The notes under the pieces are model-generated. The model saw only the letters and a list, made by a program, of their open reading frames with translations. It had not been told where the DNA came from and ran no database searches. Positions 18,707 through 62,658 of a stretch of 64,000 bases of DNA are shown in pieces (position 1 is the first letter of the stretch; each line of letters opens with the position of its first letter). The stretch covers positions 61,532-125,531 of IMG/VR virus record IMGVR_UViG_3300028412_000004. One strand, 5' to 3'. The position numbers were made by a program, and so were the translations under genes. This DNA is from a virus.

Positions 18707-21700
18707 ATGGCCGATCGTGAAGATAGAGATAAGATACGCTCCGACGAGGACTGTGAAAAAGAATTCCAGCCCCCTGTGGATGATTTGTGTCTGCCGGCAG
18801 AGTCGGAACGCAGACCAGTTCCGTGTGAAGAATCTGACGAAGACTGTGTTGACGGCTTCAAGTTCCCCGAGGCTGTTATACCAGCAGAGCCTACCGACTT
18901 CGACACACCGGTCCCTCTCACACTTCGTAACATTGAGATCACACTGAATTGTCTCGAAGAGCTCAGCGATACAGTGGGAGTCTACCCCACCAACGTCGAC
19001 GACATCTTCTACTGGGAGACACTACCGGGAGTCAGTCCTGCACAGCTCACCTATATTGCTGCGTTGAGTCAGGCGGCTAGGAACAGTGTAATGGGGGCCA
19101 CCAATGCCACGATCGAAACCGCGCTGGACGTGTCCGCGGAGCAGGCAGAATATTTCAGCACTACATTCGATGCCGCTGTAGCGACCGCAGCTTCCAAAGG
19201 AGGTTACGGGACTTCGGTAACGACACCTGTCGGCTTGTTTACCGACAGCGTAGATTGGAGAACTATTCCTCGCATTACAGAATCTAAACTGGATTACATC
19301 AGCAAACTGCTTCCAGCTACGCAAGAGTCTGCTATCCTGATGTCGCCGACAGACTTGGAAGAGACTTTCAAACTCAGCACAACGCAAGCCACGTATTTCA
19401 GAGCATTTATAGATGCTAAGCTGAGTGACCTGAACGCTATAGCTTACGTGCAAACGGAGCTGAGTCTTCGCTGTTATTGGCAGAATGAGTTCCAAGATGC
19501 GGACTGCCCTGCTGCGAAATTAATAACTTCTCTAGGTGTCACTAGTTACGAGATAGTAGCAGGCGATTCTAGATTCCACTCATACAACAGCCAAGAGGAA
19601 GCGAACGCGCTGGCCTACACTGCCGCACTCGCCGAGCTAGAGTGTTGGTACGGTAACGATGCATTACAAGTAGACTGTGGTGACGAGGGGTTCCCAGACC
19701 TAGTTCCGGGTAATATTCACGTAGATAGTGTAGGAGGTGATATTGACAACACGGTGACGACATCAACCGGCCCAGGGCTGGATACCACAATACAGGTGGG
19801 CGTTGTTACAGTAGAAGCGCTCGACACAAGGTTCGCGTCACGTAGCGGCGCCGTCACAGCAACGGATGCAGCACGTGTTTACGCCATATCATTACTGGAA
19901 TGCCGCTATAGGAACGCATTAAGGTCGGCAACGTGTGCAGTCAATACAGGGCCTGACGAAGCCCCTATCACAATAGACCTTCAACCAGGGACGCCTTATG
20001 GTAATTTAGGACAAGTTGTAAACGTACTCCCGGACTACACTGTTTCTGAGATTTCTCAAATTGACGCTGACGGACTCGCGGCAACTCTGGCGGGGTCCCT
20101 CCTCGACTGCTACTACTCGAACCCCGAAGTAACTGCAACGTGTGGCAATATACCTATAGGTCCCGAGGAAGCGCCAGTTATATATATCCCAAACGAAACT
20201 GTTACTGTAGACAGGCACGGAGCGCTGGCCTACTCAAACACCATACCAGCCAACACAACCCGCTCATACATAAGTAAGCAAGAAGCAGAAGATCAGGCTG
20301 ACGCACTCGCAGCGGCGACTCTGTATTGCATGTATTGTTCTAAGGAGATAGATCCGCTTTGTGATAGCACCCCATCGTCACTCTCTTTAACTCTGGGTAT
20401 GGTAGAAGGTGCACTATGTGGCCCTGATCCAGCTTCTATACAAGAAGAAGCTAAAGCACTCGCACGCATTCCTGTAGTGGAGGGAGATCTATGTGAGTAC
20501 GGCAACGATGAAGTAGTTGGAGCGTGTGTTGCTGGCGCTGGTATAGATGCGTCGCGTTTCCCTGAAGGTACAGCAGGGGTGGCTACCGGAGTATACCCAC
20601 CTCTCGGGGAAACCGTCGTAATACCTGCTAACACTATAGTTGTAGCGGATGCAGCAATAAACGCAGCAGCAGCTAAGGCGAATGCGAACGCTCAGGCTGA
20701 AGCGCTCGCCCTAGCTGTAATGGATTGTTTCTACACAAATAACGATGTTACGCTCGAATGTGCTCAACCTGTCGTAAACGACAATTTCACACTACATACT
20801 AGTTCGGCAAAATATCCTGAAGGAGGTCCTGACGCCTCTCCTTTCGGAACCATATTTATTAAGAAAGACACCACCTTCTCCTACGTGAGCCAATCCGCCG
20901 CCCAAGATCAGGCAGCCGCTTTGGCGTTCAGTATGCAGGTGTGTTTATACGGGAATAATCAAGTGACGATTTACTGCGACACCCCTATAGACGAATACGG
21001 ACCAGGCTTCGACGACAGATCAAACATTGCCGGCAACGCCCCAACGCCTGTATTAGAGGATACAGTGGTTACTTTAGATGGTGTGCAATCCTACCAGCTG
21101 GCTAGTGTAATAGGGGCGGCGCGGTTAAAATGTTTATTTGAAAACGAGGTTGCATACACCCACACGTGTGGGAGTATGATTGGTAACAATATTGTATCAG
21201 TCGAGGTGGCCGGTTCTGCGGGCAAATACCCAGATAGCGAGTCGCCGGGTACAGTAAACGTAGCGGTAGGTACTGTACTTTCTTCTTTAAGTATAGCAGA
21301 CGCAGACGATCGTGCTGAGGTGTTAGGCCGATCTCATGTAAATTGTCAGTATACAAACCTAGCTTTCACGCTGGATTGTTTTGATACATACATGGGTGGA
21401 GATGGCAGCTCATACGACGCTACCGCTATGGCACCAGGGGCGAAAGGTACAGTAACCGTGGCGGCTGGCGCTGTTGTCGCTCCTACTATAGGCGGTGCGC
21501 AGGACGATACTGTATCTTTAGCAGCTTCACAGTTGCTATGTATTTACGTAGGTAAGGCGTCGGTGACGGGACGTTGTGATAGTAGTTCTGATATTGTTAT
21601 ACATGAGATAACTATACCACCAGGTATAATTTTATCCGCGGAAGGTGCCGACGACGCTGAAGCCCAAGCCCAAATCCTGGCGGACGCAATTACAATTTGC

Positions 21701-22168
21701 GGAGGTAGCAGCACCTCCACGAGCACCTCCACTGGCACCTCCACCGATCCTCCTCCGTCCGGTTCCAGTAAAGATACTGCGATTGTTTTAGCGCCGTGGT
21801 TGGGGGAGGGCGGCTACACAGCTCTCTTCGTGGAAGAGCAACCTGAGGTTGTATTCAGCGACCACTTCGATGCGAAGATAGAAAAAAGAGTTTCCAGGTT
21901 TAAACTAGACTCTAGATTTTTCGATGTTTGTGAAAGGAACACGGTGAAAGTGGTAGGTGTCGTACCTAATAGACCGGGAGTGGTTGGTGTTGAGGTGGAC
22001 CTTGAAACCAACGAACTTATTGTGCGCGTGGGATGGTTCTCCAGTATAACGCGAGTGACTGGTCGTATAGCTGGTGTGCGGAAAGGGTTTGACCGCCTAA
22101 GATTCCCAACTAAAACTAGGGAAGACTTCGAATTAAACGAAGATTGGCTTAACCGAGATAAAAGATAA
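18707..22168 (+). CDS. Giant virion protein with about eleven two-cysteine repeats
   Basis: An 1153-residue protein, probably a tail fibre or other virion surface protein. Residues 1-55 are acidic. From about residue 250 to 980 it is built of about eleven units of 50-95 residues. Each ends in Leu-x-Cys-x-Tyr-x-Asn followed by a second Cys six to nine residues after the Tyr, and units are joined by Gly/Pro/Val-rich beta segments and an Ala-rich helix. A Ser/Thr/Pro linker (about 1000-1025) precedes a C-terminal domain of about 130 residues rich in Val and Arg. Paired cysteines suggest disulphide-stapled or metal-bound small domains outside the cell. The family is not recognised. It ends in an ATG overlap with the next gene. 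Confidence 0.7.
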   Translation: MADREDRDKIRSDEDCEKEFQPPVDDLCLPAESERRPVPCEESDEDCVDGFKFPEAVIPAEPTDFDTPVPLTLRNIEITLNCLEELSDTVGVYPTNVDDIFYWETLPGVSPAQLTYIAALSQAARNSVMGATNATIETALDVSAEQAEYFSTTFDAAVATAASKGGYGTSVTTPVGLFTDSVDWRTIPRITESKLDYISKLLPATQESAILMSPTDLEETFKLSTTQATYFRAFIDAKLSDLNAIAYVQTELSLRCYWQNEFQDADCPAAKLITSLGVTSYEIVAGDSRFHSYNSQEEANALAYTAALAELECWYGNDALQVDCGDEGFPDLVPGNIHVDSVGGDIDNTVTTSTGPGLDTTIQVGVVTVEALDTRFASRSGAVTATDAARVYAISLLECRYRNALRSATCAVNTGPDEAPITIDLQPGTPYGNLGQVVNVLPDYTVSEISQIDADGLAATLAGSLLDCYYSNPEVTATCGNIPIGPEEAPVIYIPNETVTVDRHGALAYSNTIPANTTRSYISKQEAEDQADALAAATLYCMYCSKEIDPLCDSTPSSLSLTLGMVEGALCGPDPASIQEEAKALARIPVVEGDLCEYGNDEVVGACVAGAGIDASRFPEGTAGVATGVYPPLGETVVIPANTIVVADAAINAAAAKANANAQAEALALAVMDCFYTNNDVTLECAQPVVNDNFTLHTSSAKYPEGGPDASPFGTIFIKKDTTFSYVSQSAAQDQAAALAFSMQVCLYGNNQVTIYCDTPIDEYGPGFDDRSNIAGNAPTPVLEDTVVTLDGVQSYQLASVIGAARLKCLFENEVAYTHTCGSMIGNNIVSVEVAGSAGKYPDSESPGTVNVAVGTVLSSLSIADADDRAEVLGRSHVNCQYTNLAFTLDCFDTYMGGDGSSYDATAMAPGAKGTVTVAAGAVVAPTIGGAQDDTVSLAASQLLCIYVGKASVTGRCDSSSDIVIHEITIPPGIILSAEGADDAEAQAQILADAITICGGSSTSTSTSTGTSTDPPPSGSSKDTAIVLAPWLGEGGYTALFVEEQPEVVFSDHFDAKIEKRVSRFKLDSRFFDVCERNTVKVVGVVPNRPGVVGVEVDLETNELIVRVGWFSSITRVTGRIAGVRKGFDRLRFPTKTREDFELNEDWLNRDKR

Positions 22169-22998
22169 TGCCTAGTTACTCATCACAGGGATCCTCTAAA
22201 AGCGGCAGTTCCAGCTCCAGTTCGAGCGGCAGTTCCAGCTCCAGTTCGAGCGGCAGTTCCAGTTCAAGTGGTAGCACTAGCTCAAGTGGTAGTGTTAGCG
22301 GCAGCGTGAGCGGCAGCGGCAGCGTGAGCGGCAGCGTGAGCGGCAGCGGCAGCGTGAGCGGCAGCGGCAGCGTGAGCGGCAGCGTGAGCGGCAGCGGCAG
22401 CGTGAGCGGCAGCGGCAGCGTGAGCGGCAGCGGCAGCGGCAGCGTTTCCGGATCTGGATCTGGTAGCGCAGAGTGTAGCTGTCTGGCACAAACCGACGTA
22501 TACACTGAAGGCGGTAATAATGGAGAAGGTTCTGGGGCCAGAAGCTACAGGACGGCTATTAGTGGTAGTTGGTCAAATCGTACGGGGAACGTGTTCAGCG
22601 ATACTGCAGCCGGTTATCAAGAAGTGTCAGTTAATTTTTCGGTGTGTGACGTAGAATCCGCGAGATTCTCTATAGTCATGGACCCGGACCTCCCCGGCCA
22701 GGTCGCTAGCATCACATGTTCGGTAAATGGTACAACACTCTCTGCCCTTGATCTATCTATAAACGGAGATGCGTACACAGCCACGCCGGCCACAGTGGAC
22801 ATAGATTTCAACTCCAGTCAAATAGATATCTTCTCTCCTAGACGTCTCTCCGTCTATTCCAGCGGCAGCGCTACGGATACAACTAATTTTATGAATAATG
22901 ACAGCTGTGCGGCTGCTATTGAAGTAACCGTAACCTGTAATAATGACGGCGGGTTTAACGCTTTAGTGTTAACGTATGAAGGAGTCACTACGTTATAG
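22168..22998 (+). CDS. Ser/Gly-stalk virion protein with C-terminal beta domain
   Basis: A 276-residue protein in two parts. Residues 5-105 consist almost only of Ser, Gly and Val, first as poly-Ser/Gly and then as Val-Ser-Gly-Ser-Gly repeats, forming a long flexible stalk. Residues 106-276 are a beta-rich domain with several Cys (Cys-Ser-Cys at its start, and others near 170, 190, 250 and 260). The start overlaps the preceding gene by one base, so both are likely parts of one fibre or appendage. A Ser-rich stalk beside glycosyltransferase genes suggests possible O-glycosylation, which is an inference. Confidence 0.7.
   Translation: MPSYSSQGSSKSGSSSSSSSGSSSSSSSGSSSSSGSTSSSGSVSGSVSGSGSVSGSVSGSGSVSGSGSVSGSVSGSGSVSGSGSVSGSGSGSVSGSGSGSAECSCLAQTDVYTEGGNNGEGSGARSYRTAISGSWSNRTGNVFSDTAAGYQEVSVNFSVCDVESARFSIVMDPDLPGQVASITCSVNGTTLSALDLSINGDAYTATPATVDIDFNSSQIDIFSPRRLSVYSSGSATDTTNFMNNDSCAAAIEVTVTCNNDGGFNALVLTYEGVTTL
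22198..22462 (+). repeat. Ser/Gly codon microsatellite
   Basis: The region is a low-complexity array of AGCGGCAGCGTG-type units preceded by AGTTCCAGCTCC-type units. It stays in one frame over about 265 bp. Long mirror frames on the other strand are by-products of this composition. Such arrays change length easily by slippage. Confidence 0.95.
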
Positions 22999-23020
22999 AT
23001 TTAAACTCGAATGTGTGATT

Positions 23021-24085
23021 ATGTTAAAAGACCATTTCAGCAAAACCGTTATATTAACTACCAAAGGTCGTGAGGATAGAGCAGAGCAAGCTCTGTCTAA
23101 GATGCGGCGGCAGGGGCTTATAGAGAGTCCTGACGACATTGAACTAGTCTACGGGATTATGGGTAGCGACCTACCGCCTCCAGCATGGTGGCGCGCCGGA
23201 GGCGGTGCGTGGGGTTGTCTTTCGTCACACATAAGAATACTGCAGGATGCTTGGCAGCTGGGCGTCCCTGAGATACTTATTTTAGAGGATGACGTATGCT
23301 GGGTGCCTGAAGCCTTAGATATCCTAGACAGCAGCATGCCCTACGCTCCGGATAACTGGGGACAAATGTACCTAGGAGGACAACACAGAAAAAGACCTCA
23401 AGTAGTGTCGGACTTTTGGCTGGCGGCGCAGAGTGTTAATAGAACGCACGCTTACGCTGTCAGCAGGAAGACTATACCGCGTATGTTACAGCACATCCAA
23501 TACGCCCCGGACTACATCAACAGCCCGTGGCCGAGGCATATTGATCACCAATTAGAGGTGGCACATCAACGCGGTGATTGGAACATCATAGCCCCAAACT
23601 ACTGGATTGCAGGACAAGATGAAAATCACTCTGCGATAAATGGACGGCACCATTTTAAACAGTGGTGGGACTGGTATGAGCCCTCTGCCCCGGGAGAATC
23701 TCCGTTTGTAGTCATCCCCAAGGACTTTAATTACGACCCTCACATAACTATGCTGCACGAGGGTTATGAAGAGGATCTTAAAGAAAAAGTTTCCAACAGC
23801 TTGCACCGAGCGGCGGTGTTTTTAGCTATGAAAACTGTGGCGCAGCAAGCGTGGGGTTTACGGAGGATGCCTGCTATACGCGTGGAAGACAAAGACATGC
23901 TGGCGGTGCGTGAAACTTGCTGGAGCTCTGGGATCGTTGATATAGAGGATATGACACAAAGTAAATTCCAAGAGTTCTTAAAACCAGATACTTTTAGATT
24001 CAAACCATTGTCTACTACCGCCCCAGAAGAGACGGATACCTCCGCAGAGGTTCCGGAACCAGCAGTGCTAGACGACAGATTGTAA
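23021..24085 (+). CDS. Family-25-like glycosyltransferase
   Basis: A 354-residue enzyme expected to transfer a sugar from a nucleotide donor. It shows the landmarks of the LPS-type GT25 family: an early Val-Ile-Leu-Thr-Thr-Lys-Gly-Arg segment, Gly-Cys-Leu-Ser-Ser-His near residue 65, and the acidic Leu-Ile-Leu-Glu-Asp-Asp-Val motif near residues 86-92 that serves as the metal/donor site. A His-rich segment (Asp-His-Gln-Leu, His-Ser-Ala) follows. The C-terminal 100 residues are not recognised. The ATG at 23021 is preferred because 15 upstream in-frame residues overlap the previous gene. It is the first gene of a glycan-modification cassette placed between fibre-like and baseplate genes. Confidence 0.8.
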   Translation: MLKDHFSKTVILTTKGREDRAEQALSKMRRQGLIESPDDIELVYGIMGSDLPPPAWWRAGGGAWGCLSSHIRILQDAWQLGVPEILILEDDVCWVPEALDILDSSMPYAPDNWGQMYLGGQHRKRPQVVSDFWLAAQSVNRTHAYAVSRKTIPRMLQHIQYAPDYINSPWPRHIDHQLEVAHQRGDWNIIAPNYWIAGQDENHSAINGRHHFKQWWDWYEPSAPGESPFVVIPKDFNYDPHITMLHEGYEEDLKEKVSNSLHRAAVFLAMKTVAQQAWGLRRMPAIRVEDKDMLAVRETCWSSGIVDIEDMTQSKFQEFLKPDTFRFKPLSTTAPEETDTSAEVPEPAVLDDRL

Positions 24086-24104
24086 AACCTTAAGCCTGAC
24101 AGAC

Positions 24105-26516
24105 ATGCCACTTAATTTTAAACCTTTAGAGTTGCAAAAAACTGATATCTTCATCGAAACCGGAACACATGTAGGAAACACTATAGCGAAGATAAAAGAC
24201 GACTACAGTGAGATACACACTGTGGAAATAGTGCCGGAGTGTTACGAAGCTGTAAGGAAGAAATATACAACTGACCCCCACATAAATTTTCACTTAGATG
24301 ATTCCCCAACAGGACTTACCAAAATACTAAAGAATGTAACAACACCAGTTACATTCTGGCTAGACGCGCATGTCCAAGATATGTCCCAGCCCGCCGGGAC
24401 AGGGGCTCCTTTATTGGAGGAGTTGGAAGTTATTAAAAATCACGTTGTGAAAACACACATGCTATTAATAGACGACGTGCGCCTTTTCAAAAAGTATGGG
24501 ACTACGGTGGAAAAGGTTAAGAGTAAAATACTGGAGATTAACAAAGACTACACATTCGAATTCGGTCGAGGTTACATTGCTAATGACGTGTTAATAGCAA
24601 GAGTAGGAGGTGCTAAAACCAAAGAGAACAATACCACAATGTTGAGTGAAGCTTTAAGAATATTAAAGGATACCGGTCACCCGACTCGCAGCGTTGTGCA
24701 TGTAGGCATGCATAACGCTACGGAAGTTGACGCCTACAAACGTGCCGGATTTTCGGATATTGTATACATAGAAGCTGACGAAGCACTTTGTGTCGCGCAG
24801 GCAGGGCGGAAAGATATAGAGGTCATCAACGCAGTGGTTAGCGACGTGGAAGGGGAGGTCTCGTTTTATAAAGCTTCGAACCGGGGTGTATCCTCGTCTA
24901 TTTTAAAACCAACCGCGCACCTGGATAACTTTCGTAATGTAAAGTTCGACGCCCCGGTAAAGCTCAGAGCAGAAACACTGGATCAGGCGCTTCAACGCTC
25001 CGGCAACTATAACGCGGATACAATAGACTTACTGGTATTAGACATCCAGGGAGCAGAGCTTCTCGCACTTAAATCATTTTCAGATCTACACAAGGTAGCT
25101 GTGGTGAAGGTAGACGTGCATACGAAAAGCTTCTACAAAGGCGCCACCACAATAAATTCGCTGTTAAATTTCTTCACCAAAAATAATTTCAGAATGGTTA
25201 AATATAGCAGATCTAAATACGGATCGGCTATATTTGTGAACTCCGCGCGACGGCAAGTGCGGGATTACACTTTTGCAGTGCCTGTTAACGAGCCCTACTA
25301 CGCCGGGTCGCACGGGGGCTTGATGGATCAAATCCTTGCAATGTTTGAGAATAGGTTGTACGCCGAGACAGCTCTGAACACTCGTGTAGCCTTTAGGGTG
25401 ACTGTCAACGACCACTGTCCAGGTTCTCTATTGGATTTCTTCGAGCCTATACCTCGTGTAACTTATTTCAACGATGAGGCGCCTTACAGTGAGCCCTTCG
25501 CACACAATAGGTCCCCCAGGTGGTTGTCTAGGTATCCCAACGCTAGTATAATTGCACGCACTCAAGATCTTAAAGTCAAACCTAAGATCGAACAACATGT
25601 TATAGACATACTGAACAACAACCCTAACCTACTAGCGGTACATGTCCGAAAAACAGATAGAGGCTGGCGACACCGCCTCTCACTAAATACAAAAGAAGTC
25701 TACAGAAGATGCGACGAGCATACCGGCCCTATATACTTAGCGACGTGCTCTCCCGCGATACAGCGTAGTATGGCGGAACGATACGGAGGGCGTCTCGTCA
25801 GTTTTGGTCCTGTCGAGAATAAAGGTGGTCGTAGGTGTACCAGCCTAGAACACGCGGTCGTAGACCTCGCCGTATGCTTAGAAGCGCCTGAATCGCTACC
25901 AGATCCTTGCAGCGGGTGGTGTTACTTTACAAGAGCATTCAGGGAGGCGGGCAACTCCCTTTTAAAGACTTCTAAAAGTCTGGCACTTAAAAAGGAGGTT
26001 AAGATAATTAGTTTCTATTCTGAGCCAGAGGAGTTCTCGACTTATTACACCAAGCACAGCCAGCGCTTCGTCGAAAATTGTCGTCAACTCGGGTTGGATT
26101 GTTTTGTAGAACACTTGGAGGGACACGGCGATTACTGTAAAAATACGCTTCTTAAACCTAAATTTATAAAAGAATGTTTATTGAAATTTAAAACGCCTGT
26201 TTTGTGGTTAGACGTAGACTCTACTCTAGAAACTAGACCTGACTTCAACAGCTTCAGAGATAGTGACTTTGCAGCCGTCAGACAGCGCAGTAAGTTGGGA
26301 CTGCATGCTTACTGTTTGTATTTTAACGATACGGCAAAGTCACACGAGATACTGGATAGGTGGATTGCTAAATGCGCTGCGTGCGAGGACCCGCTCACGG
26401 CAGATCACCAGCATCTGGCGTGGTCGGTAGAAAAGAAAGACATACACTTTATGAAAACAGCCCCAAAATTAGTGTTCTCACCTAAGTCCGAGATTGTAAG
26501 TAAGAAATGGACGTAA
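24105..26516 (+). CDS. Four-domain methyltransferase/glycosyltransferase fusion
   Basis: An 803-residue multifunctional protein. Residues 1-170 look like a SAM-dependent methyltransferase (Ile-Glu-Thr-Gly-Thr-His-Val-Gly-Asn-Thr at 17-26). Residues 183-365 form a second, FkbM-type methyltransferase (Val-Val-His-Val-Gly-Met, and Asp-Ile-Gln-Gly-Ala-Glu). Residues 390-625 resemble a GT23/NodZ-like fucosyltransferase (Val-His-Val-Arg-Lys-Thr-Asp-Arg at about 512). Residues 630-803 resemble a nucleotide-sugar transferase with Leu-Trp-Leu-Asp-Val-Asp near 701-706. It likely builds or caps a methylated glycan. The two middle domains are repeated as a separate gene downstream. Domain calls are by motif; the fucosyl specificity is an inference. 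Confidence 0.7.
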   Translation: MPLNFKPLELQKTDIFIETGTHVGNTIAKIKDDYSEIHTVEIVPECYEAVRKKYTTDPHINFHLDDSPTGLTKILKNVTTPVTFWLDAHVQDMSQPAGTGAPLLEELEVIKNHVVKTHMLLIDDVRLFKKYGTTVEKVKSKILEINKDYTFEFGRGYIANDVLIARVGGAKTKENNTTMLSEALRILKDTGHPTRSVVHVGMHNATEVDAYKRAGFSDIVYIEADEALCVAQAGRKDIEVINAVVSDVEGEVSFYKASNRGVSSSILKPTAHLDNFRNVKFDAPVKLRAETLDQALQRSGNYNADTIDLLVLDIQGAELLALKSFSDLHKVAVVKVDVHTKSFYKGATTINSLLNFFTKNNFRMVKYSRSKYGSAIFVNSARRQVRDYTFAVPVNEPYYAGSHGGLMDQILAMFENRLYAETALNTRVAFRVTVNDHCPGSLLDFFEPIPRVTYFNDEAPYSEPFAHNRSPRWLSRYPNASIIARTQDLKVKPKIEQHVIDILNNNPNLLAVHVRKTDRGWRHRLSLNTKEVYRRCDEHTGPIYLATCSPAIQRSMAERYGGRLVSFGPVENKGGRRCTSLEHAVVDLAVCLEAPESLPDPCSGWCYFTRAFREAGNSLLKTSKSLALKKEVKIISFYSEPEEFSTYYTKHSQRFVENCRQLGLDCFVEHLEGHGDYCKNTLLKPKFIKECLLKFKTPVLWLDVDSTLETRPDFNSFRDSDFAAVRQRSKLGLHAYCLYFNDTAKSHEILDRWIAKCAACEDPLTADHQHLAWSVEKKDIHFMKTAPKLVFSPKSEIVSKKWT

Positions 26517-27930
26517 TCAAAAATAATAATTGCTACCCTGAATGAATCAAGAGACTCTGTAGCATCTTCCCATTAAACCCACACTAGCGCTACTACAATG
26601 CTGCACGCCGCTTTAAAAATATTCAAGGATACTGGACACCCGACTCGCAGCGTTGTGCATGTGGGTATGGGGCGTATGGACGAGTTATCACACTACAAAA
26701 AAACAGGATTCTCCAACGTCCTGTTCGTAGAAGCTGACGAAGTGCTTTGTGTCGCGCAGGCAGGTCGGAAAGATGTGGAAATCATCAACGCTGTAATCAG
26801 TGACGTTGCCGAAGAGGTCTCGTTTTATAGAGCTTCGAACCGGGGCCTGTCCTCATCTATCCTAAAGCCAGAAAAGCATATAAAACACTTCCCAGGTGTA
26901 AAGTTCGCCGCCCCGGTAAAGCTCAGAGCAGAAACACTGGATCAGGCGCTTCAACGCTCTAATAACTATAACTCGGATACCATAGACTTACTGGTATTAG
27001 ACATCCAGGGAGCAGAGCTTCTCGCGCTTAAATCATTTTCAGATCTGCACAAGGTAGCTGTGGTGCAGTTGGAAGTAAACTTTGTGGAGCTGTACAAGGG
27101 TGGCGCTAAAATGAACGAAACACTAGAATTCTTCTACAAAAACAATTTTAGACTGGTTAAATTCAATAGCACTAGGCATGGGTACGGGGATGCAATTTTT
27201 GTAAACTCCTCCAGGTGGCAGGTGGCGGATTACACTTTTGTGGTTCATACTGCTGAGCCTTTTTGTACACGTGTAGAGGGTGGTATGGTGGACCAACTAG
27301 GGCACATATTTAAAGGACGTCTATTTGCTGAGACAAGCGCAGGCGTCTATTTAGAGACTAGCTTAAGAAGCCTCCACACTCCCGGTCGCGGAGGTATCTT
27401 TGACTTCTTTGAGCCTATAGCTCGTGTAAATTTCAGCAAGCAGCCGAGGAAAGACGCGTGTATGTTTAAACAGCATGAGCCTTGGTGTAATGCGAAGAAT
27501 CACTGGAGCATAACAGCGCGCGCTGGGGATCTTAAAGTAAAACCTAAGATCGAACAACATGTTATAGCCATACTGAATAACAATCCGAACCTGTTAGCGG
27601 TACATGTCCGCAGGGGTGATAAAGGTTGGGAAAACCCGCTCGCGGTTTCTATGGAGGAAGTCCTTCACAGGTGCGACGCTCATGACGGTCCTATCTATCT
27701 CGCAACGGATACCCCCGAAGTCCAGCAAGACATGATACAACGTTACGGGGAAAGACTCATTTATTTCGACACCGTGCGCCCCTCGTCTTCGTGGAGGAAG
27801 ACAAGCCTAGAACACGCGGTTGTAGACCTCGCCGTATGTGTAGAAGCTCCCGAAGTGTTGCCAGACACGTGCAGTGGTTGGTATCACTTGATTACAGCTT
27901 TCAGAGAAGTAGGAGCTTCCCTGCTGCGTA
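24650..27930 (+). repeat. Diverged gene-internal duplication (FkbM + GT23 modules)
   Basis: Segment 24650-25970 and segment 26603-27930 align throughout in protein and have long near-identical DNA blocks. Examples are the block around 24964 against 26922 and the block around 25588 against 27547. The spacing is about 1.95 kb. The copies were probably made by tandem duplication of part of the longer gene, followed by loss of the flanking domains in the second copy. Confidence 0.9.
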
Positions 27931-27959
27931 CTTCAAAAAAGCACACCCCAAGCGCGTGA
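26598..27959 (+). CDS. FkbM methyltransferase / fucosyltransferase-like fusion (paralogue)
   Basis: A 453-residue paralogue of residues 183-625 of the preceding protein. Residues 1-185 are the FkbM-like methyltransferase and 205-445 the GT23-like domain, with the more canonical Val-His-Val-Arg-Arg-Gly-Asp-Lys at about 335-342. It lacks the flanking first methyltransferase and last transferase domains. Long stretches are still identical in DNA, so the duplication is recent. Divergence is concentrated around residues 215-300, the probable acceptor side, which suggests a different acceptor or donor. The 81-bp gap upstream holds only a weak hairpin. Confidence 0.7.
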   Translation: MLHAALKIFKDTGHPTRSVVHVGMGRMDELSHYKKTGFSNVLFVEADEVLCVAQAGRKDVEIINAVISDVAEEVSFYRASNRGLSSSILKPEKHIKHFPGVKFAAPVKLRAETLDQALQRSNNYNSDTIDLLVLDIQGAELLALKSFSDLHKVAVVQLEVNFVELYKGGAKMNETLEFFYKNNFRLVKFNSTRHGYGDAIFVNSSRWQVADYTFVVHTAEPFCTRVEGGMVDQLGHIFKGRLFAETSAGVYLETSLRSLHTPGRGGIFDFFEPIARVNFSKQPRKDACMFKQHEPWCNAKNHWSITARAGDLKVKPKIEQHVIAILNNNPNLLAVHVRRGDKGWENPLAVSMEEVLHRCDAHDGPIYLATDTPEVQQDMIQRYGERLIYFDTVRPSSSWRKTSLEHAVVDLAVCVEAPEVLPDTCSGWYHLITAFREVGASLLRTSKKHTPSA

Positions 27960-27968
27960 ATAGAAACC

Positions 27969-28511
27969 ATGCATAAGAAACCTATGTCACCACAAACAGC
28001 TTGCAATAAGGCCAAGACCGCATTCCCGGAAGACCCTGACGAAGCTCTAGGTCCTATAGTCCGGATGCAGTGGCTCATGATCAAATCCCGCAGAAAAGGT
28101 CTAAGTGAGGAGGAGTTCCGGGAATACGTTGACATAGTGGACAAGAACTCCGAAGAGATATCGAAGTGGCACGAACGCTGGTTGTGCTCAGTGTTTGACA
28201 CCTACGCTGAGAATGGTGAAGCTGTTTTTCTCGTGTTTAGTGTGATGCGTATGATGGAAAAGATGGCGTGTCCGCGTAAGAGTATTTCTGATCAATTTGT
28301 ACGTTCCGTAAGTCTGAACAACATGGACATACACACAGCACTGGCGTATAGGATAAAAAAACTTCAGAAAGGGCACCCTTACATGTCTAAACTTACAACC
28401 AGTATGCTTAAACAAATCGAAGCAGATAAAGGATCTGTATTGGGCCGAGTTTCTCTTCTAAGGAAGCCTGGTGAGTCTGTTGTAGACGGTATGAATCGTA
28501 TACTAAAATGA
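27969..28511 (+). CDS. Unrecognised helical protein in the glycan cassette
   Basis: A 180-residue, basic, largely helical protein. It has no catalytic motif, no membrane segment and no signal peptide. A Met-Arg-Met-Met-Glu-Lys-Met-Ala-Cys stretch near residue 95 is the only conspicuous feature. It overlaps the sulfotransferase gene by four bases (ATGA), implying coupled translation, but whether it helps that enzyme is unknown. Confidence 0.65.
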   Translation: MHKKPMSPQTACNKAKTAFPEDPDEALGPIVRMQWLMIKSRRKGLSEEEFREYVDIVDKNSEEISKWHERWLCSVFDTYAENGEAVFLVFSVMRMMEKMACPRKSISDQFVRSVSLNNMDIHTALAYRIKKLQKGHPYMSKLTTSMLKQIEADKGSVLGRVSLLRKPGESVVDGMNRILK

Positions 28512-29098
28512 TTGATCTGACTAGAAATTGGGTGTTCCTGCATCCTTCCAAGACGGGCGGCTCCTCTGTAGAAGTAGCTTTGATGGAAAGTGCCTTAAAC
28601 ACTGGATCTGAGGTGGAATCAGTCTTCGGTCCTCTTTTCGCGGTGTGGGGTCCCGATGGTAAGCAGCACTGGTCCTACGAGAAGATGGTATGCCATTTTC
28701 ACTTTACCGCACATTGGAAGAAGTTTGCGACAGTCCGCCACCCTTACACACGTGTGCTATCTGAGTTTCGCTATCAGCTCTCCGGTAACAGACGCAAGGA
28801 TGGTAACCAGGAGTGCTACGCCTCCGCTGATATTAACGCAGCTATAAAGTCTAAGACTTTGTGGCGCTGCGCGTGGCCCTGGCACGGTATGTCGCAATTT
28901 GCATACCTTAGCGACGACGTTGAGTTAATACGGTTCGAGAACCTTACGGAGGATTTTAAAAAAGTGACAGGGCTGGACAACCTCAAACATGTGCTGAAAT
29001 CGCCTGAGGTTGAGCTTGACGAGCTGGACGATGAGTCTAAATCTATCATTCAGAAGAAATTTCCTTTGGATTTTCTGAAACTAAACTACGATCCATAA
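28508..29098 (+). CDS. Sulfotransferase
   Basis: A 196-residue enzyme expected to transfer sulfate from PAPS to a glycan. The 5'-phosphosulfate loop is clear near residues 11-20 (Leu-His-Pro-Ser-Lys-Thr-Gly-Gly-Ser-Ser), and the 3'-phosphate motif near 78-90 (Val-Arg-His-Pro-Tyr-Thr-Arg-Val-Leu-Ser-Glu-Phe) is also complete. It is short compared with cellular carbohydrate sulfotransferases, but both PAPS-binding elements are present. It sits at the end of a run of glycosyltransferase genes, so the substrate is probably the same glycan, either on the virion or on the infected cell surface. Confidence 0.85.
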   Translation: MIDLTRNWVFLHPSKTGGSSVEVALMESALNTGSEVESVFGPLFAVWGPDGKQHWSYEKMVCHFHFTAHWKKFATVRHPYTRVLSEFRYQLSGNRRKDGNQECYASADINAAIKSKTLWRCAWPWHGMSQFAYLSDDVELIRFENLTEDFKKVTGLDNLKHVLKSPEVELDELDDESKSIIQKKFPLDFLKLNYDP

Positions 29099-29101
29099 TA
29101 T

Positions 29102-29482
29102 ATGCAGGAGAACGTCATATTATTTTTATCAGGGTTGATTTGTGTGGGCTGGGTGCTGGAGCTGTGGTTCAAGGACGCTCCGCCGACCTGGTTAATCAAG
29201 TCATTGGCTGTAGCAACATTTACGTCGAGGCAGACGCCGCAATACTCGAATGAGGATGAGTGGTTGATCTACGCCAATTTGAACCTGGGACTGCTCGGAG
29301 GGCTGCTTACTTGCAGACAATGCCTCAGCCAGCACGTGTCCTTCTGGGGCGCGCTATTCTTACAAGTGTTCCTGGATTCTGCGGACGTATACACACGGTG
29401 TGGGTTATTCTTAACCTGCGCGCTAGGTTGGCCTTATCTGTTAAACATCATGTCCAGTATATTAGAAAAAAATGAGTACTAG
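29102..29482 (+). CDS. Small membrane protein with Cys-x-x-Cys
   Basis: A 126-residue protein with a hydrophobic N-terminal helix (residues 3-21) and two further hydrophobic segments (about 58-80 and 88-115). The sequence Leu-Leu-Thr-Cys-Arg-Gln-Cys-Leu lies at the start of the second, somewhat like DUF1360 proteins. It probably lies in the host inner membrane. It starts three bases after the sulfotransferase stop and overlaps the next gene by 11 bases. Confidence 0.65.
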   Translation: MQENVILFLSGLICVGWVLELWFKDAPPTWLIKSLAVATFTSRQTPQYSNEDEWLIYANLNLGLLGGLLTCRQCLSQHVSFWGALFLQVFLDSADVYTRCGLFLTCALGWPYLLNIMSSILEKNEY

Positions 29483-30019: not shown

Positions 30020-30739
30020 GTGGATACCAATGAACCCTTAGAACCTTACGACCGCTGGAAGCAAGATCCCTCTCCTGGAAACCTCAAGGTTGCTGTGGAT
30101 AGTCTCTCTCCGACGATCGACAATGTCCTGCGCAGTATAGGAGCTGCGGGTGATCCGTATCTAAAAACAAAGGCCAGAGTTCTGGCGTCTGGTGCGGTAA
30201 AGTCCTACGATCCGCAGTATGGGGCCAATATGCACACCTGGGTGTCCCGCCAGCTTTTACCTCTACGACGCATGAAGCGCCGAAACCAATCCGTTGTCGA
30301 TATTCCTGAGAGTATCCAACTGGACGCCTTTAAACTTATGAAGGCTGAGAATAAATTCTTAGATGAGAACGACCGGGAGCCTGATCTTATTGAGCTCTCT
30401 GATATCACAAACCTCCCGAAGAAACGCATAGAGAAGGTGAGGGCGCTGCAGATGCCCACGCCCGCTGAGGGGGCTTATGTCGATGATTCAGGAGCTGCGG
30501 TAGGCCTTCCGGGAGGTAATTCCGACTACTTATCTGAGGCGATGGATTACGTCTACCACGACCTAGATTATACAGACCGTAAGATCATGGAGTATAAATC
30601 AGGTTATGGCGGCTCCAGAATACTCCCATCGATCGAAATTGCTAAGAGGTTAAAACTGACACCGTCGCAACTCACCCGACGCAGCGCTAAACTAGGGTAT
30701 AAAGTGCAGGAAATCGAGAACGCACTATCCAGCACATGA
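30020..30739 (+). CDS. Phage RNA polymerase sigma-like factor
   Basis: A 239-residue protein resembling region 3-4 of sigma70-type factors. Residues 75-145 include a region-3-like helix run (Ile-Pro-Glu-Ser-Ile-Gln, then a helix-turn-helix with Leu-Pro-Lys-Lys-Arg-Ile-Glu-Lys-Val). Residues 175-235 look like region 4: Leu-Asp-Tyr-Thr-Asp-Arg-Lys-Ile-Met-Glu followed by a helix-turn-helix with Ile-Ala-Lys-Arg-Leu. It would direct host polymerase to phage, probably late, promoters. The start is GTG at 30020; the ATG two bases earlier gives only eight codons. It lies among tail genes and overlaps the next gene by ATGA. Confidence 0.7.
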   Translation: MDTNEPLEPYDRWKQDPSPGNLKVAVDSLSPTIDNVLRSIGAAGDPYLKTKARVLASGAVKSYDPQYGANMHTWVSRQLLPLRRMKRRNQSVVDIPESIQLDAFKLMKAENKFLDENDREPDLIELSDITNLPKKRIEKVRALQMPTPAEGAYVDDSGAAVGLPGGNSDYLSEAMDYVYHDLDYTDRKIMEYKSGYGGSRILPSIEIAKRLKLTPSQLTRRSAKLGYKVQEIENALSST

Positions 30740-33234: not shown

Positions 33235-34547
33235 TGGCCACACAACTCAACAACAAGCATGAGATAAGACCCCGGCTGGGCTCTTTCTGGTATGACCAGA
33301 TGGATACCGAGCAGGCAAAGGGTATTACTGCCATGCAACACCTTGTGGACCATTCCCGAGCGCAGAATCAACTGCAGGCTTCTGGGGATTGGGCACTGAA
33401 TGCAGAATACGCCCGAGAGAATGATATTACACTACACTACGATCCGAGAGACGTTGTGAAGGTAGGAAGCATGTGGGAGATAACTCTATCGGATGATATC
33501 TACGCATCTGCCGTAATGACGGCCGACGGTCGCACGATGTTGCGCGGGATAGGTTTCGACGCGAACAACACCACAATCAGCTTCCACGACCACCCAGACA
33601 CACTTTTCAAAAACAACTCAATCCTACTAGTGTCCGCTGAGGTTGGTAGAAGGAACCTGCTGTCCTATACCATGCAGCTGGACGACATAAAAGGACCTGT
33701 CGATTATGTAAGGGACTACTACAGAGGCAGTCAGTCCCCATTAAAATTTGAACGTGCGCTCGCCCAGGCAGCTGGTTTAAAAATCACACCTCAGGACGGG
33801 TTCCTATTGCGAGCCACTACGACTGACGAGGGCATTTGTTACGAGTTCGACTACGGCTCTATCTGTGTATCTTACGCACACGACTTTTTATTAGCACATA
33901 CCTACTACTACGCGCACACCATAATAGGCGACCAGGTTAAAGTGTTTGCGTCGAACATAAGTGACGGCGCTTCCGCGGCTGATGGTTACGACCTGTATGA
34001 TAACTTAGTGGATTGGAGTGACGGACTCTTACTGGACAGCATTTGCCCTATAAAGGAAGTCACCGTTCCTTTCGGAGATGTCGGCTTCACTACCGTAGTG
34101 TCTGGAAGCTCTGTACATTTAAAGTTTGATGCTTCCGACACGGCGCAGCCTAATAATTTACTTACCCCTACCACCGCTGTAGACGATAAATTTCACGGGT
34201 GGTTATGGAACAGTGAGAAACGCTCAGGGTTGTATCTAAACTCCTTGCTGCCGGCTCCTTTTTCAACAGCCGGACAAACAGGGTCTGTAAACCTGCTGCA
34301 GTTGATGTTCCAACATCTGCTAGGGCGGCGTGGTTTAGTAATCGACCTTAGAACCGAGAGTATAGGAGAAGAATACCACAACCGTGCTTTGAAGTTCATT
34401 TACCGAGAAAAGCCTATGGGAGTTATCCCTATCGTACGAGGGTTTGCAGCAAACTACCCAGACCCGAGCAACACCGAGTTCGTCTCAGCGGGTTACGGCT
34501 GGCAGGACTCAGGACAGTGGATAGACACCTCTAACTGGATTGATTAA
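33234..34547 (+). CDS. Baseplate wedge/structural protein ending in a Trp-rich motif
   Basis: A 437-residue protein coupled to the J-like gene by a one-base overlap. The body is beta-rich with several Tyr-rich segments (Tyr-Tyr-Tyr near 223). The last 17 residues read Tyr-Gly-Trp-Gln-Asp-Ser-Gly-Gln-Trp-Ile-Asp-Thr-Ser-Asn-Trp-Ile-Asp. A similar Trp pattern recurs inside the protein two genes downstream. By position it is likely a wedge or fibre-attachment protein, although no family is recognised. Confidence 0.55.
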   Translation: MATQLNNKHEIRPRLGSFWYDQMDTEQAKGITAMQHLVDHSRAQNQLQASGDWALNAEYARENDITLHYDPRDVVKVGSMWEITLSDDIYASAVMTADGRTMLRGIGFDANNTTISFHDHPDTLFKNNSILLVSAEVGRRNLLSYTMQLDDIKGPVDYVRDYYRGSQSPLKFERALAQAAGLKITPQDGFLLRATTTDEGICYEFDYGSICVSYAHDFLLAHTYYYAHTIIGDQVKVFASNISDGASAADGYDLYDNLVDWSDGLLLDSICPIKEVTVPFGDVGFTTVVSGSSVHLKFDASDTAQPNNLLTPTTAVDDKFHGWLWNSEKRSGLYLNSLLPAPFSTAGQTGSVNLLQLMFQHLLGRRGLVIDLRTESIGEEYHNRALKFIYREKPMGVIPIVRGFAANYPDPSNTEFVSAGYGWQDSGQWIDTSNWID

Positions 34548-34549
34548 TT

Positions 34550-34942
34550 ATGAGCATCACACTAACAAGAGCAGCAGTCTCAGAAGAAACATTAGGCGGG
34601 CGTCATGTCTGGCCTCTTAAGGTTACAGCAGTTTCCGACACCTCCGGACTACCTTCGGATATCTTTGTGTATCACGCCGACGCCGGCGGGGACCTGCTTA
34701 ACGGAGATATGTTCGAGTGCGTGGCCAGCGTGTCGCAGCTGGATGATCTAGGCACGGAACCTGACTTCATAAGCGATCCAGTGGTTCCTTACTACCGCGG
34801 TGACTTCCTAGAGTTCAACTGCCGATCTGCGCGTGACCTAGAGCTGCTGTGGTCTAAGATACAAGAGGAAGTACAGTCCCTTCACAATAACTTCACCTCC
34901 TGGGAAAGAATACAGGACGCGACTACCGTTGAAATAACATGA
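34550..34942 (+). CDS. Small baseplate-region protein, unknown
   Basis: A 130-residue mixed alpha/beta, acidic protein. The C-terminal 30 residues form a helix with two aromatic positions. It starts two bases after the preceding stop and overlaps the next gene by four bases (ATGA), so it belongs to the baseplate operon. Function unknown. Confidence 0.6.
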   Translation: MSITLTRAAVSEETLGGRHVWPLKVTAVSDTSGLPSDIFVYHADAGGDLLNGDMFECVASVSQLDDLGTEPDFISDPVVPYYRGDFLEFNCRSARDLELLWSKIQEEVQSLHNNFTSWERIQDATTVEIT

Positions 34943-35493
34943 GCTTCGATAAAGTAAAATTCTCCTACCCCGGGTTAATGCCAGTGGGATCCCCCAAGCA
35001 AGCCTCCTCGGTTAAGCTAAACGACGATGGAAGCTGCAACATACTTATCCACTCTCAGACAATGGATCCAGGAGTAGTCACTACCTTTGGGTGGAGGGAC
35101 TCTGGGGATTGGGAGGATGACGCGCAGTGGGTTGATGAGCTTAACGGTGTTGTAATTGTACACATCAACGATGTTATAATAACCATGGCGGGAGTGCGCG
35201 GGGCGGACCTTTACGTCGCCGGAGGTACTCAAGTAGTTCGGGAGCCTGCTGTGGTGGATTTGGACTCCCCGCAATTCTTCGTCGACTCTTCCGCAGAGCC
35301 CATCACCTACAACGGCACGACCTTGAAGCTGGCAGATATCCCGAGTGAAGGCTCTGATGTACACAATTACTTTCTCAGACTACCTGCGGGATTCTTTAAC
35401 CCGGGAACAAGTCGCTTGTTCGTTACAGTTAATGGGGTTGTTAGAGCCCTCACTTTAAACCGTACAATACTGAAGAGTTTCGAAGGCTACTAG
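34939..35493 (+). CDS. Baseplate-region protein with internal Trp-rich motif
   Basis: A 184-residue beta-rich protein, last gene of the baseplate operon. Residues 50-67 (Phe-Gly-Trp-Arg-Asp-Ser-Gly-Asp-Trp-Glu-Asp-Asp-Ala-Gln-Trp-Val-Asp) match the spacing of the motif that ends the protein two genes upstream. It may be a fibre or baseplate decoration protein. Its stop lies four bases from the stop of the convergent reverse gene, with a short AGGCTA/TAGCCT palindrome across the junction but no T-tract. Confidence 0.6.
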   Translation: MSFDKVKFSYPGLMPVGSPKQASSVKLNDDGSCNILIHSQTMDPGVVTTFGWRDSGDWEDDAQWVDELNGVVIVHINDVIITMAGVRGADLYVAGGTQVVREPAVVDLDSPQFFVDSSAEPITYNGTTLKLADIPSEGSDVHNYFLRLPAGFFNPGTSRLFVTVNGVVRALTLNRTILKSFEGY

Positions 35494-35497
35494 CCTG

Positions 35498-39951: not shown

Positions 39952-40155
39952 ATGAGTAAAAGAAATAGACAGTTAAAACCGCACGAAGAGGACGCCCAGA
40001 TGGACGTCCTTAATCTTGTTGGGTTGGAGAGTCGTAAAGAGCTCAGCATGCGTGTACGAGTCGCAGTCGATAAAAAGACTGGGGCTGCCGTATACCGGGG
40101 GAAGGTTTCCGCCGCGCAGATGTTGGGGCTTGCTCCACTCCCTAGCCCGAAATAA
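39952..40155 (+). CDS. 67-residue basic protein before the convergent terminase
   Basis: A small basic protein rich in Lys and Arg with a Val-Arg-Val-Ala-Val-Asp strand. Its last 14 bases overlap the 3' end of the terminase gene on the other strand, so the two transcripts converge and would be complementary at their ends. An A-rich leader precedes the ATG. Function unknown. Confidence 0.55.
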   Translation: MSKRNRQLKPHEEDAQMDVLNLVGLESRKELSMRVRVAVDKKTGAAVYRGKVSAAQMLGLAPLPSPK

Positions 40156-51780: not shown

Positions 51781-52036
51781 CATGACACCTGAGATAAAGA
51801 AAATTATAGAGAATCAAGGAGCTACTTGTCTGGGCGAAGGTACTCCTGTAGTCATGCATAACGGAAGTATTAAGAAAGTTGAGGATGTTGTGTGCGGCGA
51901 CTTACTAATGGGTCCTGACAGCAAGCCTAGAAGAGTGATTAGCCGCTGTGAAGAAATTAAAACTTAACTGGAAAGGATTACTAGACTGACATGACACCTG
52001 AGATAAAGAAAATTATAGAGAATCAAGGAGCTACTT
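51729..52036 (+). repeat. Mosaic duplication: dnaB start region twice, with an intein fragment between
   Basis: Bases 51729-51827 and 51938-52036 are identical (99 bp). They cover the end of the upstream gene, the junction and the first 15 codons of dnaB. Between them, 51827-51937 is identical to 52723-52833 (111 bp), the first 37 codons of the dnaB intein. Both joints have at most one base of microhomology. Net effect: a 209-bp insertion that leaves an intact dnaB downstream. Confidence 0.97.
51782..51967 (+). pseudogene. DnaB N-terminus fused to a DnaB N-intein fragment
   Basis: A 61-codon frame created by the mosaic duplication. Codons 1-15 equal the DnaB start, codons 16-52 equal the first 37 residues of the DnaB intein (Cys-Leu-Gly-Glu-Gly-Thr-Pro-Val-Val onward), and codons 53-61 are read out of frame from the duplicated upstream gene. 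It has its own copy of the dnaB leader, so it should be translated. The fragment contains splicing block A but not block B. It may be a harmless by-product, or an N-intein able to interfere in trans, or an assembly artefact. Confidence 0.7.
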
Positions 52037-61135: not shown

Positions 61136-62658
61136 TAGCCTTCATCTCAGGAGATGAAGACCTAATTGACCTGGTGACGAAGCCAGATCCTTGTTTTGTA
61201 AAAGTCAAACCCAGCGCCGCCCCGGAAGACGACGCTGTGTGTCGGGTGAAATATCCGAAATACTTGGTAAACTACTCATTCGAAGAAGAAGCTTCTAAGT
61301 TCCTGATGGCTTACGGTAAAGAGGGTGAATTGGTTAAGACATTCACTGAAGAAGACCTACAACGCAATGAGGATGGAACGTGGGCCCATTACAAGCATGA
61401 CCTGCATTGGTCTCTGGCTGAGATGGTGCATAAGGTTCCTCGTGAGAAGCTTCACAACAAGCGAGATAGAGGTGCGGCGAAGGTAGGGAACTTTTCGTGT
61501 TTTCCTGCTCACACCCGTATAACCACTAATAAAGGAGAAAAAGATATTGTTAATGTAACGCTTGTCGATCTCCTGTGGGACGGTCTAGCGTGGGTTTCTC
61601 ACGAAGGTGTACAATATCAAGGAGAACGATATACAATCGAGTATGCAGGCTTTCGAGCCACACCCGACCACGTTGTGTGGCTTGAAGATGGGCGAGAGTC
61701 TTGCTTTGGTGATGCCGCTCTTGAAGACGCGGACATCGCTCGCAGCCACTCGGGTTGCGTGGTGTTACAACAACGACACACAAGCTCGAGTCAGGAGGAT
61801 CAAATTGAGCATCAACGCCAGTTATACAAGCGTGTTGATGAAGAAGGGTCTGTTGGAATAAGAGCTCGTAGCGCGTTCAAGCACTTCAAACTGAAGGTGG
61901 AAAAAGTCTACGACATCATCAACGCCGGCCCTCGGCACCGCTTCACCGCCGAAGGATATCTAGTATCCAACAGTGCATATGGGGCCGTCGGCGCGACGCT
62001 AGAGAGAAAGATCGAATCCGACACCGGAGTCAAACCAGCCGAAGGGACTGGAGAGGCTCTACTACAGGCCTTGGCAGAACGTCAACCTAGAGCCACCGCA
62101 TACTTACTGTCTATGGAAGATATTCCGGAGACCCCAGGTTACATTACAGCAGCATCAGGACGCACACGCCACTTCCACTTACACGACCAAAAGTTGTATG
62201 GGATTAAATCCCGCACGCACCAAGGTATGTTGTCGGCTATGGGACGCGAGTGCAGAAATTTCCCTATGCAAGAGAGTGTTGCTTCTACAGCAGCGCGCGC
62301 TGGCGTATGGCTTCTGGAGTTTGGTCGCAAGAACGGATTACAGGGAAGTCCTATGACAATCCTGTATGACGCCGTAGTAACCAACTGCCCGGAAGAAGAA
62401 AGAGAGATATGGAGCAAAGCACACGACGTGTTCATGTTCCTAAAGAATGGTTGGAGCTACCACGGACGAATATTGACATACCCGATCGACACAGAGTTGA
62501 ATCAGGCATGGTCATGGAAACCCAGTAAGGAAAGGCTGGCCCAACTACAAGACCCTAACTTCAAACCCACGCCCGAAAGGTTTCAACACCTGCTGAAAGG
62601 GCTGGACGCAATGATAGAAGTATACAGCGCGGCGCCAAATCTGGCACTGCGTGACTAA
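61136..62658 (+). CDS. polA: Family A DNA polymerase, exon 2, with O-helix intein
   Basis: The remaining 506 complete codons of the polymerase. The frame is open upstream to an ATG at 60889, but those 82 codons are intron structure, not protein-like. The exon begins Ala-Phe-Ile-Ser-Gly-Asp-Glu-Asp-Leu (end of motif A). It reaches the O-helix at Arg-Gly-Ala-Ala-Lys-Val-Gly-Asn-Phe-Ser, where a 158-residue intein is inserted, and resumes Ser-Ala-Tyr-Gly-Ala. Motif C is Leu-Tyr-Asp-Ala-Val, with Tyr in place of the usual His and Ala in place of Glu. The C-terminus is complete. Confidence 0.9.
61498..61971 (+). other. Mini-intein in the polymerase O-helix
   Basis: A 158-residue element without endonuclease. 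It begins Cys-Phe-Pro-Ala-His-Thr, has block B Ala-Thr-Pro-Asp-His, block F Val-Tyr-Asp-Ile-Ile-Asn-Ala-Gly, and ends Tyr-Leu-Val-Ser-Asn before Ser+1. The penultimate residue is Ser instead of His, a variation known among phage polymerase inteins. Removal joins Asn-Phe-Ser to Ser-Ala-Tyr-Gly. Confidence 0.93.

What the first reader, a model, noticed from the sequence alone, without database searches (positions are those of the whole stretch)
22168..29098. Glycan-modifying cassette directly follows a Ser-rich stalk protein
The Ser/Gly stalk gene is followed by a GT25-like enzyme, a four-domain methyl/glycosyltransferase, its paralogue and a sulfotransferase, all inside the tail-gene operon. 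A simple hypothesis is that these enzymes decorate the Ser-rich stalk, or another virion protein, with a methylated and sulfated glycan. The alternative is modification of the host surface to block superinfection.
Basis: inference. Interest (0 to 1): 0.6.

Follow-up and report, generated by a model that had tools for sequence, protein, structure and literature searches.

The report
Phage Ser-rich stalk with sugar-modifying cassette
In a large uncultured tailed phage, the gene for a serine-rich tail stalk is followed by genes for enzymes that look able to build a methylated and sulfated sugar, and a distantly related phage carries the same stalk and lead enzyme in the same place, so the phage probably sugar-coats its own tail; the sugar itself has not been seen.

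Summary
Window 22168-29098 encodes a 276-aa protein (first 102 residues 58% Ser), a GT25-like enzyme, an 803-aa protein with an FkbM methyltransferase core, a 61%-identical 453-aa paralogue, an unreported 180-aa ORF and a PAPS-type sulfotransferase, inserted in the tail operon.

Kin phages changed the picture. In most, the place between the large adhesin and a small membrane protein is empty or holds other ORFs. Record G027, of a different deep lineage (terminase 42% identical), has the same order: adhesin, Ser-rich stalk, GT25, second GT25, sulfotransferase. The adhesin's last 137 aa (63%) and GT25 (51%) are the most alike of all syntenic pairs (others 21-43%). Stalk repeats differ (SGSVSG against SSASQ) but both are 58% Ser and their end domains are homologous. 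Two further kin have an FkbM gene directly behind a Ser-rich or GPT-repeat fibre.

Best reading: a module in which the phage O-glycosylates its own Ser-rich stalk in the cytoplasm and caps the glycan with methyl and sulfate. Module linkage is shown; acceptor and glycan are inferred. The main rivals are modification of the host surface, and an unmodified Ser-rich linker beside cargo genes.

The parts
18707..22168 (+). 1153-aa Cys-rich adhesin-like tail protein (DUF5977 repeats); Ser/Thr-rich linker about 21698-21772; conserved end domain 21749-22156
   Evidence: PF19404 1.2e-6; end domain 63% identical in G027 while the rest is about 24%
22168..22473 (+). Ser/Gly-rich N-terminal tract of the stalk (residues 1-102, 59 Ser)
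   Evidence: Composition and codons; tandem repeats of 12-30 bases
22474..22998 (+). Cys-containing end domain of the stalk, probably all beta
   Evidence: 34% identical to G027 stalk end domain; shuffle z 12.5, 0 of 2000; AlphaFold model all-beta but pLDDT 46
23021..24085 (+). GT25-like glycosyltransferase (ORF opens at 22976; likely start 23021)
   Evidence: PF01755 7.3e-7; 51% identical to G027 enzyme, E 2e-105; EDD motif
24105..26516 (+). 803-aa multidomain enzyme: methyltransferase-like (about 24105-24599), FkbM methyltransferase (24636-25238), fucosyltransferase-like? (25242-25979, motif only), GT-A-like with DxD (25989-26513, motif only)
   Evidence: PF05050 1.4e-9; TIGR01444 3.8e-8, below cut-off; for the first domain; motifs
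26598..27959 (+). 453-aa paralogue: FkbM methyltransferase + the same third domain
   Evidence: PF05050 4.5e-10; 61% identical
27969..28511 (+). 180-aa ORF, helical by reading, no family
   Evidence: No Pfam, PHROG (best E 0.03) or NCBIfam match; absent from kin
28508..29098 (+). Sulfotransferase, PAPS-dependent type
   Evidence: PF03567 3.7e-5 over cut-off, phrog_3347 3e-6; 5'PSB HPSKTGGS and 3'PB RHPYTRVLS; E 3e-10 to G027 protein
29102..29482 (+). Small membrane protein that marks the far edge of the variable spot
   Evidence: Hydrophobic segment; similar gene at this place in kin
30020..30739 (+). Sigma-factor-like protein, syntenic anchor (context)
   Evidence: phrog_351 4.9e-6; 42-45% identical in kin

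Best explanation
The region is an exchangeable tail-tip module: adhesin end domain, Ser-rich stalk and dedicated stalk-modifying enzymes. The stalk, whose start codon overlaps the adhesin's stop codon, is made with the adhesin and becomes a virion part. In the cytoplasm before assembly, GT25 adds or extends a sugar on Ser hydroxyls of the repeat, the multidomain protein and its paralogue extend and O-methylate it, and the sulfotransferase caps it with host PAPS. The result would be a stiff, hydrated, negatively charged stalk, protected from proteases and perhaps tuned for adhesion or shielding. Shown: gene content, conservation as a unit in a second lineage, conserved Ser content with diverged repeats. 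Inferred: stalk in the virion, stalk as acceptor, order of reactions, benefit.
For: Same module in G027 of a separate deep lineage. Adhesin end domain 63% and GT25 51% identical against 21-43% for other syntenic genes. Both occur in the same 2 of 30 kin records and no other. Stalk repeats differ but Ser is 58% in both, from both codon boxes; end domains homologous. Both phages have the adhesin TAA overlapping the stalk ATG by one base. Ser-rich linkers also precede the adhesin end domain in both. Other kin: Ser-rich fibres then FkbM (G010); GPT-repeat fibre then FkbM (G024); GxT collagen-like fibre, then a 144-aa ORF, an acyltransferase and GT2 (G001). Tail-embedded glycan enzyme in 3 of 3 Ser-rich records against 2 of 15 others, p 0.012; 0.022 without near-identical kin. 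No transmembrane segments in the enzymes. Precedent: giant-virus L230, GT part similar to human GLT25D1, glucosylates viral collagen-like peptides; PBCV-1 A064R is a GT-GT-methyltransferase building its capsid glycan (PMC9614988).
Against: No biochemical evidence. Only two phages share the full stalk-GT25 unit, and the large FkbM proteins and the 180-aa ORF are not in G027. GT23-like and GT-A domains unproven. No initiating Ser O-glycosyltransferase of known kind is identifiable. Kin carry similar enzymes away from tail genes. Kin with collagen-like tails mostly lack such enzymes. The association test is post hoc, on few records, classed partly by eye.
Confidence: 0.6

Rival explanations
1. 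Host-surface modification: the enzymes change a host surface glycan late in infection, so that progeny do not rebind debris or rival phages are shut out; they travel with the adhesin because both concern one receptor.
For: Kin carry glycan loci outside tail genes, for example the 35-kb locus of G012 with NeuA, NeuB, a UDP-galactopyranose-mutase-like gene and several sulfotransferases. Adhesin end domain co-occurs with GT25. FkbM and GT25 families also act on bacterial surface glycans (established knowledge).
Against: No membrane-bound transferase, flippase or acyltransferase in the cassette; position in the late operon directly behind the stalk in two lineages; does not explain why Ser content is kept while the repeat diverges.
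Confidence: 0.2
2. The Ser-rich tract is only a flexible, unmodified linker, and the enzymes are cargo genes in a permissive insertion spot with an unrelated acceptor.
For: The spot is clearly variable: empty in G006 and G017, other ORFs in G008, G014, G018. Ser-rich linkers without sugar are known in other bacterial proteins (own knowledge).
Against: Stalk, adhesin end domain and GT25 are kept together across lineages at higher identity than the neighbouring core genes; enzymes follow repeat-rich tail proteins in four to five separate records.
Confidence: 0.15
3. The enzymes glycosylate another virion protein, such as the adhesin's own Ser/Thr linker or a capsid protein, rather than the stalk.
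For: Both adhesins have a Ser/Thr-rich linker before the conserved end domain. Glycans on capsid and tail tube are reported for mycobacteriophages (Freeman 2023, as cited in PMC12619734).
Against: The stalk is far richer in Ser and lies next to GT25 in both phages; this differs from the best explanation only in the acceptor.
Confidence: 0.05

Closest known systems
Serine-rich repeat glycoproteins (SRRP: Fap1, GspB) with their glycosyltransferase clusters
   Same: A Ser-rich adhesive protein encoded next to its own set of transferases that O-glycosylate Ser/Thr (PMC6973325)
   Different: No GtfA/GtfB priming pair, no SecA2/SecY2 system, no wall anchor in the cassette; here methyl- and sulfotransferases; in a phage tail operon
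Chlorovirus PBCV-1 A064R/A061L capsid glycan enzymes
   Same: Virus-encoded fused transferases with methyltransferase domain that decorate the virus's own structural protein (PMC9614988)
   Different: N-glycan of a capsid protein of an algal virus; no homology tested or claimed; no Ser-rich acceptor
Giant-virus L230 and human GLT25D1 collagen glycosyltransferases (GT25-like)
   Same: GT25-type enzyme with EDD motif acting on a low-complexity structural protein (PMC9614988)
   Different: Acts on hydroxylysine of collagen; the window stalk has no collagen repeat and one Lys in its tract
Mycobacteriophage virion glycosylation (Freeman et al. 2023, cited in PMC12619734)
   Same: Phage-encoded glycosylation of virion proteins
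   Different: Capsid and tail-tube C-termini; the paper itself was not readable here; no Ser-rich stalk, methyl or sulfo enzymes known to me

Membership tests
Glycosyltransferase family 25 (PF01755) | Profile match over curated cut-off | tested here: met
   29.7 bits against 24, E 7.3e-7, but only over 44 of 199 positions
Glycosyltransferase family 25 (PF01755) | Catalytic acidic motif (EDD) | tested here: met
   LILEDDV in both G000 and G027
FkbM methyltransferases (PF05050) | Profile match over curated cut-off | tested here: met
   38.7 and 40.4 bits against 22.7; NCBIfam TIGR01444 below its cut-off
Sulfotransferases (PF03567) | Profile match and both PAPS-binding motifs | tested here: met
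   24.4 bits against 22; motifs at residues 12 and 77
GT23 / NodZ-type fucosyltransferase (third domain) | Profile or fold match | tested here: inconclusive
   No Pfam or PDB sequence match; hhalign against NodZ-like G024 protein probability 0.6%; AlphaFold model unusable, pLDDT 35
GT-A glycosyltransferase (fourth domain) | Profile or fold match | tested here: inconclusive
   No Pfam match; only the DxD-like motif
SRRP glycosylation systems | Ser-rich repeat protein beside its transferases | tested here: met
SRRP glycosylation systems | GtfA/GtfB pair and accessory Sec genes in the cluster | tested here: not met
   No such match among cassette proteins: not filed as a member
Phage virion glycosylation | Sugar demonstrated on a virion protein | not testable with these tools
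   Needs mass spectrometry of virions

The most novel reading that the evidence does not exclude
A tailed phage builds a sulfated and methylated O-glycan on a mucin-like Ser-rich tail stalk with its own enzyme set, and the stalk plus its enzymes are swapped between phage lineages as one adhesin-tip module.
Probability: 0.35. Interest if true: 0.78.

Novelty: new variant of a known kind. Interest (0 to 1): 0.6.

Why it matters
If true, it gives tailed phages a counterpart of the Ser-rich repeat glycoprotein systems of bacteria, with a sulfated and methylated glycan on the tail, and names a two-gene minimal pair (stalk + GT25) that can be tested in E. coli. It also offers a reason for the many orphan FkbM, GT25 and sulfotransferase genes in large environmental phages: look for a repeat-rich tail protein directly upstream. 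No paper on such a pairing was found in the library searched, which lacks most subscription journals.

Tried and rejected
Single-sequence searches for close relatives of GT25, sulfotransferase, adhesin and the paralogue pair in viral contigs found nothing useful; the kin came from the terminase and polymerase alignments. Searches of bacterial genomes with the terminase and GT25 alignments found no relative, so the host is unknown. AlphaFold of the FkbM + third + fourth domains failed (pLDDT 35); the stalk end-domain model is all-beta but weak (pLDDT 46), and its Foldseek matches to jelly rolls, lectins and carbohydrate-binding modules are too poor to use. PDB sequence searches gave only chance matches. 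The idea that collagen-like fibres in general bring glycan enzymes was rejected: several kin have the fibre and no enzyme. APS kinase was sought in this phage and is absent, so sulfate donor would come from the host. Promoter and terminator scans show no clear excess over shuffles. DNA glucosylation as the role was considered and set aside: the cassette is in the tail operon and away from the replication genes.

Full report
What the window is. It is bases 61532-125531 of a 125,531-base virus record. The record encodes a T4/Ackermann-like terminase, SbcCD, helicases and a UDG-exonuclease-PolA fusion, and has no relative in 50,697 isolate phage records for the two tail proteins tested. Genes lack a Shine-Dalgarno signal (31 of 109, random 24%), so the host is probably of a group that does without it; it was not found.

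The region itself. Reading along the + strand: adhesin 18707-22168, stalk 22168-22998, GT25-like 23021-24085, 803-aa enzyme 24105-26516, paralogue 26598-27959, 180-aa ORF 27969-28511, sulfotransferase 28508-29098, membrane protein 29102-29482. All are on one strand; gaps are mostly under 25 bases, the largest 81. The adhesin stop TAA and the stalk ATG overlap by one base. The first 102 residues of the stalk hold 59 Ser. Ser codons come from AGY (43) and TCN (16) boxes, which cannot be exchanged by one silent change, so selection on the amino acid is likelier than slippage of one repeat (inference).

Kin. Alignments of the terminase and polymerase gave about 30 records. The tail operon is collinear, as far as each record reaches, in G006, G008, G014, G017, G018, G021, G022, G024, G026, G027 and G028. 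Between adhesin and membrane protein lies a variable spot: nothing in G006 and G017, small or unrelated ORFs in G008, G014 and G018, the 7-kb cassette in the window's phage. Adhesin ends differ too: collagen-like in G006 and G008, Ser/Gly-rich in G014.

The second copy. G027 has, in the same spot, adhesin 1201 aa, Ser-rich stalk 348 aa, GT25 331 aa, a second GT25-like 210 aa, and a 449-aa protein with a sulfotransferase part (PF03567 2e-12) fused to a Caps_synth part (PF05704 6e-26). Identity to the window: adhesin end domain 63%, GT25 51%, against 21-43% for twenty or so other syntenic pairs, terminase 42%. The stalk repeats are unlike (SGSVSG, SSASQ) but Ser is 58% in both; the end domains align at 34% with the same spacing of the last two cysteines and score 12.5 standard deviations above shuffles. 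In the terminase tree the window's phage sits in a 14-record clade (support 100/98) that excludes G027 and G010. The adhesin end domain and this GT25 were found in no other of 30 records. Either the module moved between lineages or it was lost often; in both cases it behaves as a unit.

Wider pattern. Across all proteins of the kin read here, the only tracts with 30 or more Ser in 60 residues are in G010, the window's phage and G027. In G010 two large fibres with poly-Ser/Lys linkers are followed, one base after the stop, by an FkbM gene. G024 has a (GPT)n fibre followed by FkbM (4e-20). G001 has a GxT collagen-like fibre, then a 144-aa ORF, a hexapeptide acyltransferase and GT2 (5e-23). G022 has three GPP collagen-like proteins followed by a 2OG-Fe(II) oxygenase (1e-14), the superfamily of prolyl hydroxylases. 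So a repeat-rich tail protein with an enzyme suited to that repeat recurs. Counting by hand, a tail-embedded glycan enzyme occurs in 3 of 3 Ser-rich records and 2 of 15 others (p 0.012; 0.022 after removing near-identical kin). This test was made after seeing the data.

Mechanism. Shown: the gene set, motifs, conserved order and composition. From family knowledge: GT25 transfers hexoses and includes enzymes that glycosylate collagen-type structural proteins, among them a viral one (PMC9614988); FkbM enzymes O-methylate sugars; PF03567 enzymes use PAPS to sulfate sugars. Inferred: Ser of the stalk is the acceptor; the 803- and 453-aa proteins extend and methylate; sulfate caps. No enzyme of the cassette has a membrane segment, as expected for a soluble acceptor made and assembled in the cytoplasm. 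The record has no APS kinase, so PAPS would come from the host; kin G019 does carry one, next to a GT8/sulfotransferase-like protein.

Against. Kin also hold glycan loci far from tail genes, above all a 35-kb locus of more than 30 genes in G012 with several sulfotransferases, NeuA and NeuB. Such phages may remodel host glycans as well, and the cassette could do so. The two glycosyltransferase domains of the 803-aa protein remain unproven, and no known initiating Ser transferase was recognised.

Verdict. A real and conserved module. It is a new variant of virion glycosylation; it works like the Ser-rich repeat glycoprotein systems but is not a member of them.

Noticed in passing
window 40142-42796 (-): Terminase large subunit carries an intein-like insert (PF14890 7e-8); kin such as G001 lack residues about 214-454.
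   Followed up: partly
window 51991-54291 (+): DnaB-like helicase with an intein (Hom_end_hint 4e-19) and weak homing endonuclease match.
   Followed up: no
window 57181-59625 and 60889-62658 (+): Uracil-DNA glycosylase, 3'-5' exonuclease and N part of DNA polymerase A fused in one ORF; the rest of the polymerase is in a second ORF, with another ORF (59468-60892) between.
   Followed up: no
whole record G000 (window plus L002-L005): No Shine-Dalgarno signal upstream of genes: 31 of 109 against 24% at random places.
   Followed up: partly
L126 9218-11156 (-): Three collagen-like (GPP)n proteins in a tail operon followed by a 2OG-Fe(II) oxygenase, a possible phage prolyl hydroxylase for its own collagen.
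   Followed up: partly
L062-L064 (G012 55-91 kb): A 35-kb glycan locus in a phage: several sulfotransferases, FkbM, NeuA, NeuB, LicD-like, UDP-galactopyranose-mutase-like, epimerase, caspase-like gene (some names by reading only).
   Followed up: partly
L141 5585-7716 (-) (G019 33585-35716): Phage-encoded APS kinase (PF01583 2e-25) next to a GT8/sulfotransferase-like 538-aa protein; epimerase like GDP-fucose synthase at L140 7665-8609.
   Followed up: partly
L092 11284-12991 (-) (G019): FkbM and weak GT9-like genes between terminase and the 212-aa conserved gene, away from any repeat-rich fibre: a counterexample to the adjacency rule.
   Followed up: partly
L076 369-9341 (+) (G010): Two fibres of about 1450-1535 aa with poly-Ser/Lys linkers; the second has DUF285 repeats (9e-51) between the linkers.
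   Followed up: partly
G000 record 47159-48229 (outside the window, L004): 356-aa protein with BspA-like leucine-rich repeats by reading.
   Followed up: no
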